IMG/VR virus record: IMGVR_UViG_3300021964_000294
Span: 1-31,817 of that record
Origin: a virus
DNA length: 31,817 bases
Strand: one strand, 5' to 3'
Shown here: one piece after another, positions 180 through 19,937 of the stretch
How positions within the stretch are numbered: position 1 is the stretch's first letter
How the letters are laid out: every line of letters starts with the position of its first letter
Translations under genes and position numbers: made by a program
Notes under the pieces: generated by a model
What the model was told of the DNA's origin: nothing
Database searches by the model: none
What the model saw: only the letters and a program-made list of their open reading frames with translations

Positions 180-340
180 GTAATATTACTTAATGCGTAC
201 ACCTCTAGGAGGCAGATACGGCCACAGGTAGCACCTGTTAGTTAAAAAATACGTGCGTGTTCGCAACCGACGACAAACCTTGACATTGTTCAAGGTCAAT
301 GGGAATGACGGCCAATGTAAGACGCATTAAGTAATATTAT
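180..340 (+). ncRNA. Candidate structured RNA closed by an 18-bp perfect stem
   Basis: Positions 181-198 (TAATATTACTTAATGCGT) are the exact reverse complement of 322-339, with a G-U pair possible at 180/340. The 123 nt enclosed hold several local hairpins: 202-205/209-212 (CCTC/GAGG), 224-229/233-238 (ACAGGT/ACCTGT), 254-257/262-265 (TGCG/CGCA) and 277-283/290-296 (ACCTTGA/TCAAGGT). The word ACGGCCA occurs at 218-224 and 308-314, so the GGCC cores could also pair. There is no credible ORF. A structured RNA is the preferred reading; a small inverted-repeat mobile element is the alternative, but no clean target duplication abuts the repeats. Confidence 0.55.
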
Positions 341-347
341 TTGTAAT

Positions 348-411
348 TGGTGGAATGAATGGCGAAAGTCCCAATACTTCACTCAGAGGAAGCGTTCTGA
401 GCATTCCATCA
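348..411 (+). ncRNA. Candidate three-way junction
   Basis: The outer stem pairs 348-357 with 402-411 (10 bp, one G-U). Arm 1 is a small GAAA tetraloop hairpin around 361-372. Arm 2 pairs 382-387 with 396-401 (CTCAGA/TCTGAG) and directly abuts the outer stem. The segment lies between the 18-bp element and the first gene, so it is probably part of the same leader transcript. Confidence 0.45.
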
Positions 412-428
412 TATTACATAAAATGTAG

Positions 429-705: not shown

Positions 706-715
706 AGGCAAACAA

Positions 716-773
716 CAGCTACTACGATAGGGATTTCAAAGAATGAAACCTGAAATACTATTGTAGTAGTCTG
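716..773 (+). other. Long imperfect hairpin after the first gene
   Basis: CAG (716-718) plus CTACTACGATAG (719-730) pair with CTATTGTAGTAG (758-769) plus CTG (771-773), with one G-U pair and one bulged T. An upper stem pairs ATTTCA (733-738) with TGAAAT (751-756). TTTAATA follows, so it may act as a weak terminator for the gene ending at 705, or stabilise that mRNA's 3' end. Confidence 0.5.
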
Positions 774-806
774 TTTAATATAGAATTACAAGAGGCAAGA
801 AATATT

Positions 807-894
807 AGGGAAATAATTGCATTACAGGATGAACAGTAATGATACTAATGCAACTATGTGCACAATAGTCTATAATGGTATAGATTATTTCCCT
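807..894 (+). ncRNA. Candidate four-way-junction RNA with no unpaired junction bases
   Basis: The outer stem pairs AGGGAAATAAT (807-817) with ATTATTTCCCT (884-894), 11 bp perfect. Three arms fill the interior exactly: 818-824/846-852 (TGCATTA/TAATGCA), 853-857/865-869 (ACTAT/ATAGT) and 870-874/879-883 (CTATA/TATAG, loop ATGG). Each arm begins on the base after the previous one ends. The result is a cloverleaf-like four-way junction. It has no T-loop consensus and 11-bp rather than 7-bp outer pairing, so it is not a normal tRNA. Confidence 0.5.
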
Positions 895-927
895 TTTATT
901 TTGTATATTCACACACAAAAAAAGAAA

Positions 928-1095
928 TAGATAGATAAAATAAAAGGTAGTAAAAAGATATAGAACACCATATTAATTTATAATGTATAGTTCACTATAC
1001 AGTGTTCATTTCTGTGTCGGAAAAAGAGGGCACACTGCAAAAACATATCAAAGACGACTAAGAGCGGTGCAAGCACTATGGCTTTTATCTATCTA
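928..1095 (+). promoter_or_regulatory. Structured 5' leader element, copy A of a twin pair
   Basis: A 13-bp perfect stem pairs 928-940 with 1083-1095 (TTTTATCTATCTA). Inside, GAACAC (963-968) pairs with GTGTTC (1002-1007) and encloses GTATAG/CTATAC (985-990/995-1000, loop TTCA). A further arm pairs GTGT (1014-1017) with ACAC (1032-1035). CAGTGT (1000-1005) could instead pair with ACACTG (1032-1037), so alternative folds exist. The element ends about 20 nt before the ATG at 1118. Copy B at 1630-1797 is also 168 nt and shares the closing arm and the blocks GCAARAACATAT, AAGAG, GTGCA and TATGG. No known riboswitch class was recognised. Confidence 0.55.
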
Positions 1096-1629: not shown

Positions 1630-1797
1630 TTAGATAGGTAAAAATAGAATGTTTTATAATGAGGATGTCAAGCACATACAGTAGAATATTTCATGATTAG
1701 GCCAATCATTAGTACTTATAATACTTGTGTGTAGAAACACTTTATAAGCAAGAACATATTTCGAAGAAGAGTGCACATATGGTTTTTATCTATCTAA
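1630..1797 (+). promoter_or_regulatory. Structured 5' leader element, copy B of a twin pair
   Basis: A 15-bp stem (one G-U) pairs 1630-1644 with 1783-1797 (TTTTTATCTATCTAA). Interior arms include ATGATT/AATCAT (1693-1698/1704-1709, loop AGGCC) and CTTATAA/TTATAAG (1715-1721/1742-1748), enclosing GTGT/ACAC (1727-1730/1737-1740). The 3' part repeats copy A: GCAAGAACATAT (1748-1759), then AAGAG, GTGCA, TATGG and the closing arm. Both copies are followed by a gene whose start reads AAGGAAAA(A)TAATATG. Copy A and B are probably paralogous regulatory RNAs; the ligand or partner is unknown. Confidence 0.55.
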
Positions 1798-3076: not shown

Positions 3077-3134
3077 TCAGAATAGAGGTAGTATGTAAGG
3101 CGGTCACCGTGACGCATTACTACCTCAGTTCTGA
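3077..3134 (+). promoter_or_regulatory. Long 5' leader hairpin
   Basis: TCAGAA (3077-3082) and GAGGTAGTA (3085-3093) pair with TACTACCTC (3118-3126) and TTCTGA (3129-3134) around a small internal loop. The top is a second short stem, 3100-3106 with 3110-3115 (loop CCG, one bulge). No U-tract follows. The gene at 3162 begins 27 nt later with an AAGGAGAG site, so this is more like an mRNA-stabilising or processing hairpin than a terminator. Confidence 0.5.
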
Positions 3135-3611: not shown

Positions 3612-3681
3612 TTTAATAATTGGTGCTCCCTGAGTAGTGAGTTAAATGGTTCAGTTCTCCAGGATACAGCCAAACATATTG

Positions 3682-3747
3682 TCCCCTAGTGTCGGCCTAG
3701 TATGTCGTAACGGTGTATAAATCTAGATGGTAAACACGGCTAGGGGA
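3682..3747 (+). promoter_or_regulatory. Leader element closed by TCCCCTAG/CTAGGGGA
   Basis: Positions 3682-3689 pair perfectly with 3740-3747 (8 bp). Inside, TGT (3690-3692) can pair with ACA (3734-3736), and CTAG recurs in the interior, including the palindrome ATCTAGAT (3721-3728). The element ends about 20 nt before the ATG at 3767, next to its ribosome-binding site. The rest of the gap (3612-3681) has only weak complementarity and no ORF. Confidence 0.45.
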
Positions 3748-3766
3748 TGATAAAATAGGAGAATAT

Positions 3767-8484: not shown

Positions 8485-8667
8485 ATGATAAACATAAGAA
8501 CAGTTAACAAAGAAAATATTATGGCACAAGAAATTGTGTTTTTGTATTTATTTGTTATCGGTGTTACATATCAAAAAGAAAGAGGAGAACACTTTTCATT
8601 TAATTTTGGAATAGGTCCAATTGGATTAGAGTTCACTTTGAGGTTGTGGAATGGCACATCCAAATAA
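8485..8667 (+). CDS. Small protein with one hydrophobic segment (60 aa)
   Basis: Residues about 16-30 (EIVFLYLFVIGVTY) form a short hydrophobic segment that may be a membrane helix; the rest is glycine/aromatic. The start at 8485 is chosen because GGAG (8475-8478) lies just upstream; a second ATG at 8521 has no good site. It overlaps the nuclease gene by 17 nt. Function unknown. Confidence 0.5.
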   Translation: MINIRTVNKENIMAQEIVFLYLFVIGVTYQKERGEHFSFNFGIGPIGLEFTLRLWNGTSK

Positions 8668-8983
8668 AATACGTGGTAACAATCTTGAACGAGAAATCGT
8701 TAATCAGTCGAAAGAGGAAGGGCTCTCTGCAAAGAGGGCCTATGCCTCAGATGGTAGGTCACTAGGGTATAGTGAAGTAGTTGATTGTGTAGTAGAAGGT
8801 TGGACCATACAAGCAAAACGTAGAAAGAAAATAGCACAATGGTTATACCCAGAAAATCATGGAGATGATGTAGATGCGGTTGTGACTAGGATGGATAGAA
8901 AGGAGGCGTTAATAGTTATGCCTCTAAAAAAATGGATAAAAATGATGAAGGAGATAAAAGATGGCAACGGTAAAGCTAAATAA
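8651..8983 (+). CDS. Holliday-junction-resolvase-like nuclease (110 aa)
   Basis: The order RGNNLEREIV (Glu13), then VVDCVVEG (Asp45), then TIQAKRRKK (Gln54-x-Lys56) fits the E...D...(Q/E)xK active site of small restriction-endonuclease-fold resolvases, archaeal Hjc-like. The length is right for this group. It would cleave branched intermediates generated by the annealing protein and by replication. It sits directly downstream of the primase-helicase, and its last 23 nt overlap the next gene. Substrate specificity is inferred. Confidence 0.65.
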   Translation: MAHPNKIRGNNLEREIVNQSKEEGLSAKRAYASDGRSLGYSEVVDCVVEGWTIQAKRRKKIAQWLYPENHGDDVDAVVTRMDRKEALIVMPLKKWIKMMKEIKDGNGKAK

Positions 8984-10559: not shown

Positions 10560-13500
10560 CTAATCTAAATCTTCTTCTATTTCTTCTTCATTTGCTTCAA
10601 TTTGGTCTCTTCTTAGTTCATGAAGCGTATGAACAGGTATTCCAAACATAAATTCACCAAACATAGCAGGACTTTTATAAGTTCTAGCTACATCTCTACC
10701 AAATCTACCAAATGGAAAATAAGTTGCTAATTGATATTTAGTTAGATTTTCAAAATCACCATTTAATAATGCAGTTGTTGGTGCTAAAACAAAACGAGCA
10801 ACAGGTGGTGTTACAATACTTAATGGTGATAATACTGGATGCGGGTATTGACTAAAGAATGCACGTTCTCTTTCTTCTTCATCACCAAATAATAACATAG
10901 AAGTATCTTGCATCCAATTCATAGGAGGTGATAATGCATAATCAAATATACTTGCAACAAATACATTAGCAAGTGCTAATGCCATTAAGTCTGCAGTAAG
11001 TTGTCTTTGTGCTCTTTTAGTTTGATAACCACCAGACCACTCTTCAAATCTAGCACCTCTATATATTTTAATTCTTCTACCAATACTATTCCAAGCATAA
11101 GGATGGAAACGTGTCATGACTCTACCTAAAGATGTATTAGCTACATTAGGTCTTTGTGTTGCATGATAAATAAACTGTGATGCTTTTACAGTTCTATTAG
11201 CTAATTGTATTAACATAGGATGGTCAAAAGGTAAATTTTTACCAAACTCACCTAAAATTTTTCTAGCATTTATGTATGCTGCATCCCAAGTTCTACTACG
11301 TAACAAAAACTCAGATTTTCTCATAAAAACAGCACCAGCATTAGTAATAGCTTTGCCTGCACCTACCTCTTTAAACACTTCTCTAGTAGTCATATCAGCA
11401 AAGTTATCAAATTCTTTTTCATTTTTATCACGCAATCCATCTTTACTAATTGTTTTAGATACAGTTTTAACTGCTTTAACTAATGGTTCTGACATACCTA
11501 CGGTTTGGAATCTTGAATCTTTTTGTGCTTCATTAATTAACATATCTTCAAAAGTACCAATGTATGCTTGCCATTCTTCCCACTCTTTTCTATTTCTAAT
11601 TCTTTTGGTAATAACTTCACCACTAGCAGAGTCTAAAATTTTATATGTTGTATTTTCACCCCATACATTATCGTTCCACCAAGTATCAGATAACGCATCT
11701 GTAAATGGTTTTAATCCTACATCAGTAATAGTATTACTACCACCACCATATATGTTAGTTAAAAATGTTTTAGGGTGAAACAACAACGACATCATTTCAA
11801 ATTTACCTTCAAGGTCATTTAAATTTTGTCCTAATCTTGCTATGTACATATCTCTTGCAGCTCTATTTTTAGGTGCTGCATCTAATATTTTACCACCAAA
11901 TACTTTGTCTATACGTTCAGTAAACTCAATAACAGATTCATCTGTCATTAATCCATAACCATTTCCAAATCTACCTATTTTATTTATATTTTTTTCTTGT
12001 AATAATTTAGATAAATTTTCCATTCTTAATTCTTTAGCCATTGCTTGTGCACGTTCTAATCTTGTATCTGGGTCTATGTTGTTACGTTTCATAGCTTCTA
12101 TTTCTGCTCTGACTGAACCACGCTGTAATGTGTCTAATCCAATATGATAGTCCACACGTTCTAAAAAGTCTTTTTGTTTACGCATACCTTTTACAAAACT
12201 TTTATCAAAATCATTTTTAGCATAATCTTTTAGTAAATCAAATTCTTTTTGTGTAATACCATGAATATCAAAATTACGTATAGAAGGATATCCCATTTGA
12301 TTCTTAGCAACATCCATCATAAAGTATGCCCAAGACTCTGTAATATCTTTATCTGTTCTTAGTGGATTTTTATTTACAAAACGTTTGATATTATTACCTA
12401 CTTTTAATGATAGGTTGCTATTAATTAAATTTCTATACATAGAACCTACATACCTATCTACATGATTAATACCAAGGTCCCATTCAGGTAAACTAACTTC
12501 TTCACTTCTACCTTTCAAGTGTCCATTATATCTTGCACTATCCATAGGTTTTTGTAAAGTAAAATCTTCTATAATAGCAAGCTCTGCTATATCATTTATT
12601 CTATCGACACCTTTAGTATTATATCCTTCGTACTTTTCTCTTAATGATATTTCATATCTTAATAAAGCTTTTTTAAAAGATATTTCATCTCTATTGCTTG
12701 CAGCAAATTCTAAGTCTATAGATGATAATATTTTAGGGTCTTTAGAAGCTTTTTCTAATTCTTTTTGTATAATTTTTTCTATAGCTGCTTCATTTTGTTC
12801 TCTTCTAAACTTAGTACCAAAAGCATCTGTATGAGGAACATAATATTTACTAGTACCATCAGATGCTAAATATCTACCTATACTAATAATTTTTGTTAGC
12901 GGTTTATTACGCATATAATCTTCTTTTACTTTTCTAACTACAGCATATTCTTCTTTAGATAATTGTTTTGTAAAATCTAACTTTACCATCTTTCCTTTAA
13001 CTTTTATTTCTTTTTCAAACACACGTTCAAGATGTTCATTTAATCTTTGGTAGTATCTAAAAAAGTTAACGTCAGTAATGGAAGGTAATTGTCTTAAAGC
13101 GCTTAATGGATTGCTAGCAATTAATTCACTTAAACCTGCATACAATGCGTCTATTTTTGTTTGATTTGAAAGCAATCCGTTTGCATCTAAAAATGTTATT
13201 TTCTTTTGTTGTAAATCGTAAGCAATTTTTTTATCAACATATCCTTTTTCATTTGGCTTAGGTTCAGTTAAGATTTCTTCATCTGTAATTTTGTATTCAT
13301 TAATTTTTTTACCGACTTTTATTAATTTATCTTTTAACGTAGAAACGTTGCTTAGTATTACATCTCTTGCAACAGTTGTCATAATATTCGTGTATGCATC
13401 ATTTATCATTTTTACAACTTGTTCTGGTGTTTTATTTATACGCTCACCTTTAACGCCAGTTTCTGTTTCAAAATTAAATTTTACACCTTCTTTAGTCATT

Positions 13501-16500
13501 TTGTCAAACTCTGCTTTAAGTGCATTGTATTTGTTTTCTATATTTATTTCCTGTTCTCTGTTTTTAATACCATCATAATACTTTAATGTGCCATCTTTAG
13601 CAGGATTTGCTTCTCTTCGTATCATAGCAAATTTAAACAAGGTAGTAAAGTTATTACCTTGAGCTCTGTCTTCTGGTCGAATTAAACGTAAATTTTGTTC
13701 TATCTGCTCTTCAATGTCTTTTTGTTTAGCATTATTCATTTGATGAAACACTAAAATTAATTCTGTATTTAACTCTATAGTACTAAAAGGCATTGTACCA
13801 ATTTTATATTTAATATTACCATCTTTATCTTTTACTATATTTTTTACAAGACCTGGAGTTAAAAATTCTTTTTTGTTTTCAATAAATTTTAATTGGTCTT
13901 TCAATGTAGTAGTAGCAAAATGTTCAAACCAAGTAGGTGTACCATCTACAAAATATATTCCTTTTTCTTTGCTAAATTTTATTGATTTTTGCATTAATCT
14001 TTTAACAATACCAGGTTGTAACATAGAATCATAATAATTCATAAAATTGTTTATATCTTTTGCAGTAGCATCAGTAAACTCTTTACCTATTTGAAATCCT
14101 TGAAATGGTCTACCCGTAGTAAAAGATTCAAATTGAGCATCAATAGTAGGACCAAAACCTTTATATTTTTTTAAAAAGTTTTCTAATCTACGCAATACAG
14201 CTTTACCATACTCTGTTACGTTAGGGTCTTTATAAGCTTCTTCAAAACTAATTTTTGCATCACCAGTTTCTTTATCTACTAGAATTTTTCTATATTGTTC
14301 TTCAATAATTATTTCTTGTTTGTTTTCTTTTTCTTTAGCTATTTCTTCACGGACACCTTTTTCTAAATCTTTAACCTTAACTGTTCTAGTTTTACTTACT
14401 GGTATATCTGCATTCTTAGTAGTTTCTGGTGCTTTAATTTCATTTGTTTTATTATATACAGCATCTATGGTGTTGAAAAATACTTTACTATTAGCAGGGT
14501 CAATAGCAGGATTCTTAAACATCAATTCGTTTTGTAATCTTTCAATAGCATTCTTAATGTTTCTTACTTCTGATAGCTTTGCATTAGTATCACTGTCATA
14601 CTTCATGGTACTTTCATCAGGAAATCTTTTTTCTAAATCTTTATATATTTCTTGTATTCTATCATAACCTTCATTCAATGTATATTCTACATTCTTTTTA
14701 AGTTTATTATTATAAATAGAATCACCAAGCTTAGGATTTCCTTTTGTTTTTACAATCGGATGTGCGTGTAATGCAAAATCCATAAACGCATACATTTCTC
14801 TACGTACAATGTTTAATGCTTGTGGATTCTTAATACGTTTACTTAACATAGTATTCATTACTTTTTTCATATCAAGTATAGACTCTGCAATAGCTCTACT
14901 GTTTTCACCTTGTTTCATTTCAAAAGTTTTTCTTAATATGGTTTGTAAATCTTGTATAATGTTTTCTCTAGCCATACCTTGTTTACTTAATAACTCTATA
15001 ATGTAATCTCCTTTACGTGTTAACAAGTCAACACCAATAAGATTATTTACTGTTCCTCTAAGATTTTTACCACCTTTTAAATCATTAGTTAAAAACTTTA
15101 CATTCAAATCTTTATAAAAATCTAACAACTCTAATTCTTTAAATGTGCTACTCTTCTTAAGGTTTTGATAGGTACGTTGTAAGTACGCCACAACATTTTC
15201 TGGACTAGTAAATTTAAAGTTTAAAAACTCTCCACCCATATCTAACTTAGATAATATCTTTGCTTGCTGCATAAAGTAATTTGTTTCTGCACCTTGTTTC
15301 ATATATGGTTGCCATTGGTCTATAAAGTCTTTAGCAGCTTTAATTAATGATGGATTTTTAATTTTTCTATATTTTCCTTTACCAGTATATCTATGTTCAG
15401 GATTTACCCATACATCTTTTTTGCTTTGTATAGCTTTAGAAAATACTTTAAATGCGTGTAAACTTGTTTGTTTGTTATTGGTTAATGTATACCACTTGCT
15501 AGATTTTTGTGTGCTAATATCTTTACCATTACGTTGTACTGTAAAAAATGTTTCAAATATCTTTTGTACATTATCAGTAGCTTTACCAATTTTTACAAAC
15601 TCTGCACTATCTACTGCAATATTAATACCAGTATAACTTACATCTTTTAAAAATCCAAAGTCGTTTAATTTAATTTTTAAGGTAAGTCCATTTCCAATAT
15701 TCAATTTACCACCATTAGTAGTTATAATATCAAATAACATTTGAAAATCTGTAGTAGCATTTACAATAGTACCTACTGCTTTTTTACCTTCATATGCAGC
15801 TTTAGCAGCTTTTATTCTTTCTTTGGTGCTAAATAACATAGATAGTTTTTGACCTTCGCTAATTTCTTTATCTTGAAATACTACATCAAATAAAGTTTCT
15901 GCAATACTACGACCTTGTTTGTCGTATTTATTTTTCATAACTTTTAAATCTCTAGGTGTAGCACTAATATTACCATCTTGTAATTCATATTGTATTTTAG
16001 GATTACCAAATGCTTTTTTAACTATAGAAGGCAATGATTGATATCCTGTTACTGTATCACCATCTTTATCCATACCTCCTAAATACAAATCGTTTAACTC
16101 TGATGCAAAGAAATTATATCCACCACGTTCTACAAACCCTTTAAATGCCAATGCTCTTACACCACCATTACCACTATTAGGCGTACGCATTACCAAGAAT
16201 GTTAAAGCATCTTCTAGTAAATCTAACATTAACTTATCTTCTTTAGTTTTTTGAAGTTTTTTGTATTTTTTATATGCTTGTTCAAGAGTCATTACTTCTT
16301 GACCAACTTTTATAGGATTTTTTCTATGTTGTTCTCCGAGCATAAACTCTGTTTCTTTAAGACCATGCATACGTTCTAAACGTGGCGTATAAAGCCCAGC
16401 ATAGGCCTTAAATCCACTTTCTACACCTATTTGATTACTTCTACCTACAATGTATCTAGCAAGGATATTAGATATAAAATTCTGATTCTCTTTCATTACA

Positions 16501-19500
16501 TTAAATGCGTAATCAGTTTTCTTTAATACCTCTGGTGTAAATCCTAAGTCTGCTATTTCTGCCATATCTAATGTAGCAACATCAGATAGTTCTACAGTGT
16601 CTTTATTTACTTGTTTATTTAATTGATTTACTATTTCCTTTGCTTTTTTGGTGGTAGGATTTGCTTGTAATGTATCAATTAAATCTTGTACATTAATAGT
16701 ATCAATGTCAAACTTAACGTAATCGTCTCCACTTTTTAAAAATTCTTGTGTTAATTTTTTATTACCTTCCATATTTTTAATACGTAATTCTTGTATTGCA
16801 TCAAAATATGCTTGGTCAAAATCTTGTAATGTATTTTTATCTAAAAATTGTTTGTATAACTTTAATTTTTTTTGTCTATTAATTTCTTCTTTTTGTTTAT
16901 ACACATAATCAGTAACTGATTCATTAATACCTAGTTCTTCAGGTCTAATCTTAGCAACATCAAGTGCATCTTTAAATGACCAAGTATCATTCTTACCTTC
17001 TATCAATTCATTAAGTTTTAATTTACCAAGCTGTTTAATACCACTACCATATACTAGAATATGTGTATTAGTATCCATCATTAATTTATTTAGTCCAGCA
17101 GACTCTGGTTTAAATCCACCTGACTTAGTACGTATTTCTCCTCTACCCATTCTAGGGTTTGCTACAATAACAGGTTTTAGAAATCCGTAATCTTTAGCCC
17201 AACCAAATTTATCGCCAATACTATTCCATACATCTTCTCTAATAATAAAACCACCATCAGTTCCAGATTCTAACTCTATACCATACTTCTTTAGTTTTTT
17301 ATCGGTAACACCTACTAAGTTTAGATATCCGTATATATCACCATCCATAACCTTAGCAAGGTCTGTTGCATCCATAGGTACTACATCACTTTGTGGTAAT
17401 GTATCGTATTTGTTGTCTTTTAATACATCGCCATTAATTTTGCCTTCAGCTATATCTTGTTTTAATTCTTTTAATGCTTTCTTTAAATCTGCTTTATTAA
17501 CAGTAGGGCGTTCAATATATCCATTGTCTAACAACTTATATACCATATTAGATGCCATCTCTAATTGCTCTGTTGCACTTTTTAAATAGTCTTTACTAAT
17601 ACCAGATTCAAGCATAGCTTCTACATAAGTATTAAGATTTTCTTTGACATTGTTTGGCACTCTCTGTAATACAATTGTTCCTTTGTCTTTAGCACCACCA
17701 TAAATATAATAATCACTGTATTCTACTAGTATGTTTTCATATAATGCATCAAGTTCTTTTTTACTATATATATCTAATGGTTTTTTGTATATACCAGGAT
17801 TCTTTGGGTCTTCTGCTTTTCTAATAATAACACGTGTATCAAGTCCGTATCGTTCGTTAATAGAGTTTTCAGCAGTACGTTCTACTAGATTTTTACCATC
17901 TTTATCTACTTCTAGTTTGGGTTTACCCTTAGAATCTTTACCAGTACCTATTTCAACAATCTCTCCTGATGCATTAATAGCAAACTGAGAACGTTCTGCA
18001 TAAGTTTTAATGCGTAAAAACATAGACTTTAAAGGAACTTCACCTACTTCGTTTTTAAATTTTACCCCTTTAAACTTGCTATTAATATAAGATTCAAATC
18101 CAGAATAATCGTTTATATTTTGATATACACCTTCAATTAATAATTGTTTTGTATCATATTTGCCTAAGTTGTAATTGCTAGGTTCTTTTACAATCTGTTG
18201 ATATACTTTATCTAATGCTGCATTAATAGTTATAGGGTCGTTTATATCGCCATCTTTTGATTTCATATAGGCATTATACTCAGGGTCAAAACCATCTAAG
18301 AATCTTTTTTTAACTTCTTCTATTTGAAATTTTTCTACTGCTTGTTCTACTGCCTGTTGACGTTCTTGTGTTTTTCTAGCAAAGTCTTTATCTGTTTCAA
18401 ATTTTTTAATATATAAATCTACTGGTGTTCTACCTCTATCCATCAATGATTGTACAACATCTGACTTTGTTGCTTCTTCTGATAATTCTTTTAGTTGTTC
18501 TGGATTAGCTTTTTCAATATCTATTTTCTTTTCTTCAGCTATCTTAACAATTTCTCTATCAATAATAAGTTTAGCACCTATTTTCTGTGCACGTTGTTGT
18601 TGCTGTAAATATAATGTATTAACGTGCTTATCAAACATTTCTTGTACTTCAGGATTCTCTTTATATATCTCAGTCTTTTGTATGTCTTTCTTATATCTGT
18701 TAATGTTGCTATTACCATTCATCATAGGGTTTTCAGCAATCATTTTTCTAAACTTAATCTCTTGTGGTGATTTAGAGTTAGCACCAAAAAAGAATCCCAT
18801 CATATATTCATAGACTTGTTCTGGTAATGGTAATTGATTGTATGTAGCCATACCACCTTGGAATGCAGCACCAGATATACCACGTGCAAATGCATTAGCT
18901 GCAGTTTCATTAGTTAAAGAGTTGTCTGCTGCATCACGTACTGCCTGCTCTCCTAGTTTTCTTGTCTTAGGATTTGATAATAGCTTAGATATGTTTACAT
19001 AACGACCAATACCACCAAAAGTAACCCCTGCTAATGCACCATGCATTGTAGATTCTGCAATAGCTTTTGGTCCTTTCCATACAGAGCTAGCACCTAATGC
19101 AACGCCAAGATGTACACCTTCTCTAGCTAGTTGTTGAAATGTTTCATTCTTAAATAAACCTTTAGATAAAAATCCTTGTGATAATAAACCAGATGATGCA
19201 ATCTTTTTTTCTATATTATCAGTAACCATATCGGCTACACGCATAGGTATAGAACGTATCTGCCAACCTTTTAAATCTTTTATTTTTTTTTCACCAGCTT
19301 TCAATGCTAGCTTAACAGCTTCTTCTTGTCCTTCTTCTGCTATAAACTTAGCAAATGGTCTAAATCCACCTATTTCTATCTTAGCTGCACTTTGACCCAT
19401 TGATGCTGCTAAACCACTAGCAGATTGCTTTATAGATTCTTCAGCTGCCTCTGCTGCAACTACTTGGTCTGCTATCTTACTACGTTTAGTTGCTGCTTCT

Positions 19501-19937
19501 TTAGTTGGTCTACCTACTGCACGCTTTACTGCTAATTTAGCACCACCTCTTTTAGCTATAACCCCTGGTACTGCAGCACCCATAGATAATACACTAGCTA
19601 TAATATCAGGAGCAAATCCTATAAAGTGACCTACCTTATTAGCTAATGCTTCTGTTTGTGTATCAGCTTCTGATGCCCAACCTAGTGTGGTAAACCCTTC
19701 TACAACACCAGAAGTAAATTGATTTAATACATCACGTACACTATTCTCAGATGATGCCATATCTCTATTGAAATCAATGTCATTAGCCTTCATTCTTTTT
19801 TCAATAAAGTCTACATCTTCTTCTGAAAAGTCACGTGGATTAGACTTATAAGCTAAATCTATTCTAGTTAAATATGTTTGTTTATCGATTAATCTTTGTG
19901 AATAAAGATTATTCAAATATTGCAACTGTGTATTCAA
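10560..19937 (-). CDS. Giant virion protein, probably ejected with the DNA (3125 aa)
   Basis: One uninterrupted 9.4-kb frame. The first codon is TTG at 19937, supported by AGGAGA six bases upstream and by the previous stop just before it. The N-terminus (about 100-130, GHFIGFAPDIIASVLSMGAA) and two further Gly/Ala-rich segments within the first 370 residues are hydrophobic. The long middle is charged and helical. The last 180 residues have hydrophobic helices (LMALALANVFVASIFDYAL) and an acidic tail, like the C-terminal membrane-associated domain of large polyvalent phage proteins. Following two probable internal virion proteins, it likely enters the host and spans the envelope. No RNA polymerase or transglycosylase motif was found by eye. 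Confidence 0.65.
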   Translation of the reverse strand: MNTQLQYLNNLYSQRLIDKQTYLTRIDLAYKSNPRDFSEEDVDFIEKRMKANDIDFNRDMASSENSVRDVLNQFTSGVVEGFTTLGWASEADTQTEALANKVGHFIGFAPDIIASVLSMGAAVPGVIAKRGGAKLAVKRAVGRPTKEAATKRSKIADQVVAAEAAEESIKQSASGLAASMGQSAAKIEIGGFRPFAKFIAEEGQEEAVKLALKAGEKKIKDLKGWQIRSIPMRVADMVTDNIEKKIASSGLLSQGFLSKGLFKNETFQQLAREGVHLGVALGASSVWKGPKAIAESTMHGALAGVTFGGIGRYVNISKLLSNPKTRKLGEQAVRDAADNSLTNETAANAFARGISGAAFQGGMATYNQLPLPEQVYEYMMGFFFGANSKSPQEIKFRKMIAENPMMNGNSNINRYKKDIQKTEIYKENPEVQEMFDKHVNTLYLQQQQRAQKIGAKLIIDREIVKIAEEKKIDIEKANPEQLKELSEEATKSDVVQSLMDRGRTPVDLYIKKFETDKDFARKTQERQQAVEQAVEKFQIEEVKKRFLDGFDPEYNAYMKSKDGDINDPITINAALDKVYQQIVKEPSNYNLGKYDTKQLLIEGVYQNINDYSGFESYINSKFKGVKFKNEVGEVPLKSMFLRIKTYAERSQFAINASGEIVEIGTGKDSKGKPKLEVDKDGKNLVERTAENSINERYGLDTRVIIRKAEDPKNPGIYKKPLDIYSKKELDALYENILVEYSDYYIYGGAKDKGTIVLQRVPNNVKENLNTYVEAMLESGISKDYLKSATEQLEMASNMVYKLLDNGYIERPTVNKADLKKALKELKQDIAEGKINGDVLKDNKYDTLPQSDVVPMDATDLAKVMDGDIYGYLNLVGVTDKKLKKYGIELESGTDGGFIIREDVWNSIGDKFGWAKDYGFLKPVIVANPRMGRGEIRTKSGGFKPESAGLNKLMMDTNTHILVYGSGIKQLGKLKLNELIEGKNDTWSFKDALDVAKIRPEELGINESVTDYVYKQKEEINRQKKLKLYKQFLDKNTLQDFDQAYFDAIQELRIKNMEGNKKLTQEFLKSGDDYVKFDIDTINVQDLIDTLQANPTTKKAKEIVNQLNKQVNKDTVELSDVATLDMAEIADLGFTPEVLKKTDYAFNVMKENQNFISNILARYIVGRSNQIGVESGFKAYAGLYTPRLERMHGLKETEFMLGEQHRKNPIKVGQEVMTLEQAYKKYKKLQKTKEDKLMLDLLEDALTFLVMRTPNSGNGGVRALAFKGFVERGGYNFFASELNDLYLGGMDKDGDTVTGYQSLPSIVKKAFGNPKIQYELQDGNISATPRDLKVMKNKYDKQGRSIAETLFDVVFQDKEISEGQKLSMLFSTKERIKAAKAAYEGKKAVGTIVNATTDFQMLFDIITTNGGKLNIGNGLTLKIKLNDFGFLKDVSYTGINIAVDSAEFVKIGKATDNVQKIFETFFTVQRNGKDISTQKSSKWYTLTNNKQTSLHAFKVFSKAIQSKKDVWVNPEHRYTGKGKYRKIKNPSLIKAAKDFIDQWQPYMKQGAETNYFMQQAKILSKLDMGGEFLNFKFTSPENVVAYLQRTYQNLKKSSTFKELELLDFYKDLNVKFLTNDLKGGKNLRGTVNNLIGVDLLTRKGDYIIELLSKQGMARENIIQDLQTILRKTFEMKQGENSRAIAESILDMKKVMNTMLSKRIKNPQALNIVRREMYAFMDFALHAHPIVKTKGNPKLGDSIYNNKLKKNVEYTLNEGYDRIQEIYKDLEKRFPDESTMKYDSDTNAKLSEVRNIKNAIERLQNELMFKNPAIDPANSKVFFNTIDAVYNKTNEIKAPETTKNADIPVSKTRTVKVKDLEKGVREEIAKEKENKQEIIIEEQYRKILVDKETGDAKISFEEAYKDPNVTEYGKAVLRRLENFLKKYKGFGPTIDAQFESFTTGRPFQGFQIGKEFTDATAKDINNFMNYYDSMLQPGIVKRLMQKSIKFSKEKGIYFVDGTPTWFEHFATTTLKDQLKFIENKKEFLTPGLVKNIVKDKDGNIKYKIGTMPFSTIELNTELILVFHQMNNAKQKDIEEQIEQNLRLIRPEDRAQGNNFTTLFKFAMIRREANPAKDGTLKYYDGIKNREQEINIENKYNALKAEFDKMTKEGVKFNFETETGVKGERINKTPEQVVKMINDAYTNIMTTVARDVILSNVSTLKDKLIKVGKKINEYKITDEEILTEPKPNEKGYVDKKIAYDLQQKKITFLDANGLLSNQTKIDALYAGLSELIASNPLSALRQLPSITDVNFFRYYQRLNEHLERVFEKEIKVKGKMVKLDFTKQLSKEEYAVVRKVKEDYMRNKPLTKIISIGRYLASDGTSKYYVPHTDAFGTKFRREQNEAAIEKIIQKELEKASKDPKILSSIDLEFAASNRDEISFKKALLRYEISLREKYEGYNTKGVDRINDIAELAIIEDFTLQKPMDSARYNGHLKGRSEEVSLPEWDLGINHVDRYVGSMYRNLINSNLSLKVGNNIKRFVNKNPLRTDKDITESWAYFMMDVAKNQMGYPSIRNFDIHGITQKEFDLLKDYAKNDFDKSFVKGMRKQKDFLERVDYHIGLDTLQRGSVRAEIEAMKRNNIDPDTRLERAQAMAKELRMENLSKLLQEKNINKIGRFGNGYGLMTDESVIEFTERIDKVFGGKILDAAPKNRAARDMYIARLGQNLNDLEGKFEMMSLLFHPKTFLTNIYGGGSNTITDVGLKPFTDALSDTWWNDNVWGENTTYKILDSASGEVITKRIRNRKEWEEWQAYIGTFEDMLINEAQKDSRFQTVGMSEPLVKAVKTVSKTISKDGLRDKNEKEFDNFADMTTREVFKEVGAGKAITNAGAVFMRKSEFLLRSRTWDAAYINARKILGEFGKNLPFDHPMLIQLANRTVKASQFIYHATQRPNVANTSLGRVMTRFHPYAWNSIGRRIKIYRGARFEEWSGGYQTKRAQRQLTADLMALALANVFVASIFDYALSPPMNWMQDTSMLLFGDEEERERAFFSQYPHPVLSPLSIVTPPVARFVLAPTTALLNGDFENLTKYQLATYFPFGRFGRDVARTYKSPAMFGEFMFGIPVHTLHELRRDQIEANEEEIEEDLD

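What the first reader, a model, noticed from the sequence alone, without database searches (positions are those of the whole stretch)
807..894. Perfectly packed four-way junction
Four stems (11, 7, 5 and 5 bp) tile 88 nt with no unpaired base at the junction: breaks fall at 817/818, 852/853, 869/870 and 883/884. Exact tiling is unlikely by chance in AT-rich DNA. The fold resembles a cloverleaf but lacks tRNA signals. It could be a tRNA mimic, a protein-binding RNA, or, as DNA, a cruciform target for the phage's own resolvase (8651-8983).
Basis: partly seen in the sequence, partly recalled or inferred. Interest (0 to 1): 0.62.

Follow-up and report, generated by a model that had tools for sequence, protein, structure and literature searches.

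The report
Swappable structured-RNA cassette in marine phages
The four-armed fold is real and far from chance; it appears to be one of many different stem-closed RNA modules that an uncultured group of marine phages swaps in and out between its early genes, and no known RNA family matches it.

Summary
The four stems (11, 7, 5, 5 bp) sit exactly at 807-894 with no unpaired junction base. It is the only such junction in the window, and 0 of 150 shuffled windows contain one. With the outer stem fixed, 0 of 20,000 interior shuffles tile into three hairpins.

Three further distinct homologues (L160, L197, L002) keep all 28 pairs while loops change in length and sequence. The evidence points to RNA rather than DNA: in long stems of the early intergenic regions, G.U mismatches outnumber A.C 54 to 12 on the transcribed strand, against about 1:1 by composition.

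The element is one of a set of exchangeable stem-closed cassettes. At the same site, related phages carry only the outer hairpin, a different tight four-way element, another element, or none of these. No tRNA, Rfam or ORF explanation fits.

Best reading: an RNA domain of an early phage transcript, insulated or processed through its long closing stem, with the branched head as the exchangeable functional part. That function is inferred. RNA energy models do not favour the four-way form, and this element shows no compensatory double changes. Cruciform-for-RusA and tRNA-mimic ideas are not supported.

The parts
807..817 (+). P1 5' arm (pairs with 884-894, 11 bp)
   Evidence: sequence; kept in all E5 homologues, one G.U change; kept as a closed hairpin in six relatives without the head
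884..894 (+). P1 3' arm, followed by TTTATTTT
799..804 (+). outer extension of P1 (pairs with 897-902 across a TT/TT internal loop)
   Evidence: stem 799-818/883-902 found by the stem caller
818..852 (+). P2 hairpin, 7 bp (818-824/846-852), 21-nt variable loop
   Evidence: all pairs kept in 4 of 4 homologues while the loop differs
853..869 (+). P3 hairpin, 5 bp (853-857/865-869), 7-nt loop GTGCACA whose first six bases are self-complementary in every homologue (GTGCAC, GTGCAT with one G.U, ATGCAT)
870..883 (+). P4 hairpin, 5 bp (870-874/879-883); loop 4 nt here, 3 nt in L160/L197, longer with 2 extra pairs in L002
785..798 (+). conserved left flank TTACAAGAGGCAAG shared by different cassettes at this site
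898..913 (+). conserved right flank ATTTTGTATATTCACA, 5' UTR side of the next gene
714..775 (+). neighbouring stem-closed cassette E4, also at this site in other phages
180..340 (+). cassette E2, structured RNA with covarying pairs
342..419 (+). cassette E3
928..1095 (+). cassette E6, closing stem TAGATAGATAAAA/TTTTATCTATCTA
1630..1797 (+). cassette E7, similar closing stem, different interior

Best explanation
807-894 (with its outer extension 799-902) is a structured RNA domain made as part of an early phage transcript, and one of a set of exchangeable, stem-closed RNA cassettes lying between the early genes of an uncultured marine phage group. Shown here: the fold exists in the sequence, it is not chance, homologues keep every pair while loops drift, selection on such stems as a class acts on RNA of the early-gene strand, and different cassettes occupy the same site in different phages. 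Inferred: it is transcribed early; the long closing stem insulates the module (as an RNase III-type processing site, an mRNA 3'-end/terminator hairpin, or both). The four-way head is the variable functional part, most likely a scaffold that presents its loops (P2 loop, self-complementary P3 loop) to a host or phage protein, or to a second copy of itself. The patchy, swapped distribution fits accessory functions, such as host takeover or counter-defence, better than an essential one.
For: Exact tiling: 0 of 150 shuffled windows; 0 of 20,000 interior shuffles with P1 kept. Four distinct homologues keep 112 of 112 pair cells, against 34-54% when partners are slid. Between the window and L002, stems differ at 2 of 56 positions (both to G.U) and the P2 and P3 loops at 13 of 28, Fisher p 4e-6 (counts by eye, test). 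Class-wide: 111 long stems in 27 kb of early noncoding DNA against 16 per shuffle; G.U 54 to A.C 12, p 2e-7, or 14 to 3 counting one stem per cluster, p 0.013, composition expectation 0.96. At the same site: P1-only hairpin (L252, L261, L262, L264, L271, L272), another tight four-way element (L269, L293), a further element (L273), E4 alone (L243, L250, L263). Neighbouring cassette E2 shows 8 pairs with both-side changes. The bare hairpin in L007 is terminator-like.
Against: E5 itself has no compensatory double change, only two G.U changes, in four close sequences. RNA nearest-neighbour folding prefers other interiors by 0.7-1.7 kcal/mol, and P2/P3 pair probabilities are low. Interiors of the cassettes as a group are hardly more stable than shuffles (median z -0.6 against -0.4 for control pieces). 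There is no transcript data. Protein binding, processing and any accessory role are not tested.
Confidence: 0.5

Rival explanations
1. The functional part is only P1: a terminator or processing hairpin at the end of the upstream gene, and the branched head is passenger sequence that came and went.
For: P1 is kept alone in six relatives, where it is a 12-bp hairpin followed by TTTATTT, terminator-like by the scan. The interior alone is not unusually stable.
Against: The head tiles exactly in each homologue despite loop indels and substitutions, and loops change far more than stems. A passenger would not keep P2, P3 and P4.
Confidence: 0.25
2. A DNA-level element: a cruciform or single-strand hairpin used by the phage's RusA-like resolvase, a replication origin, or a MITE-like mobile insertion with terminal inverted repeats.
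For: With DNA parameters a four-way fold is the MFE of the + strand. The cassettes have inverted ends and a patchy distribution. A RusA-like gene is present.
Against: G.U >> A.C on the + strand across the class; strand symmetry is expected for double-stranded DNA. Ends differ from cassette to cassette, whereas one transposase would share them. Cassettes E2 and the T-arm type have conserved interiors inside different closing stems.
Confidence: 0.1
3. A short coding region or decayed gene: in L160 and L002 the span reads as a downstream frame (REIIALQEVSNDNNATMCIIVYN / REIIALEKILNGNNAAICIIVYN).
For: Open for 23+ codons in L160, L197 and L002.
Against: 0 synonymous and 7 nonsynonymous codon differences, with changes spread over codon positions 5:2:4. 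The window copy is frameshifted. No intact protein relative in the loci held.
Confidence: 0.06
4. A tRNA mimic or member of a known RNA family.
For: Cloverleaf-like number of arms. Another cassette in the same phages carries a T-loop-like GGGTTCGAATCCC.
Against: No ARAGORN hit, no Rfam hit at gathering, only chance-level hits below it. No T-loop, D-loop or CCA in E5; the acceptor-like stem is 11 bp.
Confidence: 0.03

Closest known systems
Early-mRNA RNase III processing hairpins of T7-like phages (own knowledge)
   Same: Long hairpins between early genes of a phage transcript
   Different: Here the stem carries an exchangeable multi-branched head, and both head and stem vary between close relatives; processing is not shown
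Phage-encoded stable or structured noncoding RNAs (phi29 pRNA, T4 stable RNAs, GOLLD; own knowledge)
   Same: Structured RNA encoded among phage genes, no protein product
   Different: No Rfam match; many unrelated small modules swapped at the same sites rather than one conserved RNA
Candidate structured RNAs found by comparative metagenomics (PMC2864571)
   Same: Structured RNA candidates inferred from environmental sequence by comparing homologues
   Different: This motif has only four distinct homologues, confined to one phage group in the collections searched
Fully stacked (4H) RNA four-way junctions such as the natural hairpin-ribozyme junction (own knowledge)
   Same: Four helices with no unpaired junction base
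   Different: No Rfam ribozyme match

Membership tests
tRNA / tRNA-like | Covariance-model or ARAGORN match; T-loop, D-loop, 7-bp acceptor, CCA | tested here: not met
   P1 is 11 bp, loops lack the signals
Any Rfam 15 family | Score at or above the curated gathering threshold | tested here: not met
   0 hits in the window; best weak hits far below gathering
Structured RNA (generic) | Pairs maintained across homologues with consistent or compensatory change | tested here: inconclusive
   100% of pairs kept, 2 consistent G.U changes, 0 compensatory; class-level G.U over A.C excess
RNase III processing site | Cleavage in the long stem by RNase III | not testable with these tools
   long P1 with a 2x2 internal loop is compatible; no biochemical data
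Intrinsic terminator | G+C-rich stem followed directly by a T-run | tested here: inconclusive
   bare hairpin in L007 is called terminator-like; the full element has a head too long for the scan
Holliday-junction / cruciform target of RusA | Conservation at the DNA level on both strands | tested here: not met
   strand-asymmetric G.U excess in the class
Holliday-junction / cruciform target of RusA | Binding or cleavage by the resolvase | not testable with these tools
   no biochemistry available
MITE-like mobile DNA | Shared terminal inverted repeats and target-site duplications | tested here: not met
   closing stems differ between most cassettes; no consistent duplication seen by eye on comparing filled and empty sites

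The most novel reading that the evidence does not exclude
The phage group keeps an 'RNA armoury': dozens of unrelated, stem-closed RNA modules exchanged between early-gene sites, each binding or mimicking a different host component (hints: a T-loop-bearing module and a tmRNA-like piece). The four-way junction at 807-894 would be one such module, possibly dimerising through its self-complementary P3 loop.
Probability: 0.25. Interest if true: 0.85.

Novelty: new variant of a known kind. Interest (0 to 1): 0.58.

Why it matters
Phage accessory regions are normally described as swapped small protein genes. If the swapped units here are RNAs, gene-based annotation misses them entirely, and they form a natural library of structured RNA inhibitors or scaffolds that can be tested one by one. 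The G.U/A.C strand test and the same-site swaps give a simple way to find such regions in other viral genomes.

Tried and rejected
Rfam at gathering and at permissive E-values: no match for this element. Similar DNA in cultured phages: none. Protein relatives in cultured phages: one weak primase hit for the helicase, none for the 805-aa protein. A scan of bacterial genomes for a T-arm cassette core: nothing. A scan of bacterial genomes with the A1 protein to find a host: nothing. Giant 3125-aa protein as an N4-type virion RNA polymerase (which would have made hairpin promoters plausible): no family or PDB support. Coding reading: rejected. First pair count was one column out of register and was redone. 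Element caller and interior z-scores: the closing stems carry most of the stability. Paper searches found no description of such cassettes, but most subscription papers are not held.

Full report
What is there. The window is a 31.8-kb linear virus record, judged marine from the phage contigs it matches. The four stems lie exactly as described at 807-894, between a 72-aa ORF (487-705) and the next gene, inside a region rich in long stems: six in the first 2 kb against 0.65 per shuffle. A search for perfectly packed four-way junctions finds only this one in the window and none in 150 shuffled windows. With the outer stem fixed, no interior shuffle of 20,000 tiles into three hairpins.

Is it conserved as a structure? 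Relatives were collected through the helicase, a neighbouring 265-aa protein and flank or core patterns. Four distinct sequences carry the element: window, L160, L197 and the L002 group. All 28 pairs are kept in all four; sliding the partners by 1-3 columns leaves 34-54%. Between the window and L002 the stems differ at 2 of 56 positions, both giving G.U, and the P2 and P3 loops at 13 of 28 (p 4e-6; test, counted by eye from the alignment). The P4 loop ranges from 3 nt to a long loop with two added pairs. There is no compensatory double change, so covariation does not prove P2-P4. RNA energies place the four-way form 0.7-1.7 kcal/mol above the best alternative, and with DNA parameters a four-way fold is the MFE for the window, L197 and L002. 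The first six bases of the P3 loop are self-complementary in every homologue (GTGCAC, GTGCAT, ATGCAT), which may mean dimerisation or coincidence.

What surrounds it. The same site, bounded by AGAGGCAAG on the left and TATTTYGTATATTCAC on the right, holds different things in different phages: this element; only its P1 as a closed hairpin (L252, L261, L262, L264, L271, L272); another tight four-way element with a long P1 (L269, L293); a further structured element (L273); or cassette E4 without E5 (L243, L250, L263). Model R1 also gives the L269/L293-type element a marginal match (24.9 bits, E 0.04 over 724 kb). A second site upstream of the 72-aa ORF is empty in four contigs and filled by different stem-closed elements in others. 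Across the relatives' early regions 74 noncoding stem-closed elements fall into 45 sequence clusters; some of these will be chance stems. Some cassettes recur with different closing stems around a conserved interior (the T-arm type in L264 and L273), and different cassettes share a closing stem (TTAGATAGATAAA..., TCAGAATAGA...). Cassette E2 (window 180-340) has eight pairs with both-side changes among six sequences, so real structured RNA sits next door.

RNA or DNA. Stems were called by Watson-Crick score only and non-standard pairs inside them counted. On the early-gene strand G.U outnumbers A.C 54 to 12 (p 2e-7), or 14 to 3 counting one stem per cluster (p 0.013). Base composition predicts about 1:1, and shuffled stems give 19 to 13. 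This is expected for selection on an RNA of that strand and not for a DNA cruciform. The same noncoding stretches hold 111 long stems against 16 per shuffle.

What it is not. No tRNA, no Rfam family. The frame running through it in L160 and L002 shows 0 synonymous and 7 nonsynonymous differences, is shifted in the window and has no intact relative. Its P1 alone looks like a terminator when bare, which is the strongest rival: P1 may do the work and the head may be optional.

How it most likely works. Shown: fold present, non-random, maintained, RNA-level for the class, exchangeable. Inferred: it is transcribed early; P1 insulates or is processed; the four-way head scaffolds loops for a protein or for self-association; swapping reflects accessory, host-directed roles. 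None of these inferred steps was tested.

Limits. Only four close homologues; no metagenome scan was available; host unknown; no expression data; cassette interiors are on the whole not more stable than shuffles.

Noticed in passing
window 180-340; L269, L277, L278, L280, L285: Cassette E2: conserved GCAGATACGG...GTGCGTGNTCGNAACCGA...CCAATGT core with compensatory changes; no Rfam match; looks like a new RNA family in its own right.
   Followed up: partly
L261, L264, L267, L272, L273 early regions: Cassette with a T-loop-like hairpin GGGTTCGAATCCC; the interior is conserved while the closing stem is entirely different between L264 and L273 yet still pairs.
   Followed up: partly
L264:5982-6124 (- strand): Match to alphaproteobacterial tmRNA, mainly a 3' UTR piece (GGGGTTTGACGCAGCCTGGCAACAGAAATGCGTC), 26.9 bits, E 5e-4, below the gathering score of 50.
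   Followed up: no
L277 and L278, early-strand coordinates 2248-2369 and 2145-2266 from the start of the 265-aa gene: Structured cassette contains GTTTTAGAGCTA, which from memory equals the start of the S. pyogenes Cas9 crRNA repeat; probably chance.
   Followed up: no
window 10560-19937 (- strand): 3125-aa protein close to a lysozyme-motif protein; no Pfam, PHROG or significant PDB match.
   Followed up: partly
window 3077-3134 and 3677-3752: Further stem-closed noncoding elements; the TCAGAATAGA...TCAGTTCTGA stem encloses different interiors in relatives, with a nested insertion in L252.
   Followed up: no
L002:3602-3720: A second element beside E5 in the L002 group re-uses the same P1 3' arm with a differently composed 5' arm (one mismatch, one G.U), aligned by model R1 at 34 bits.
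   Followed up: partly
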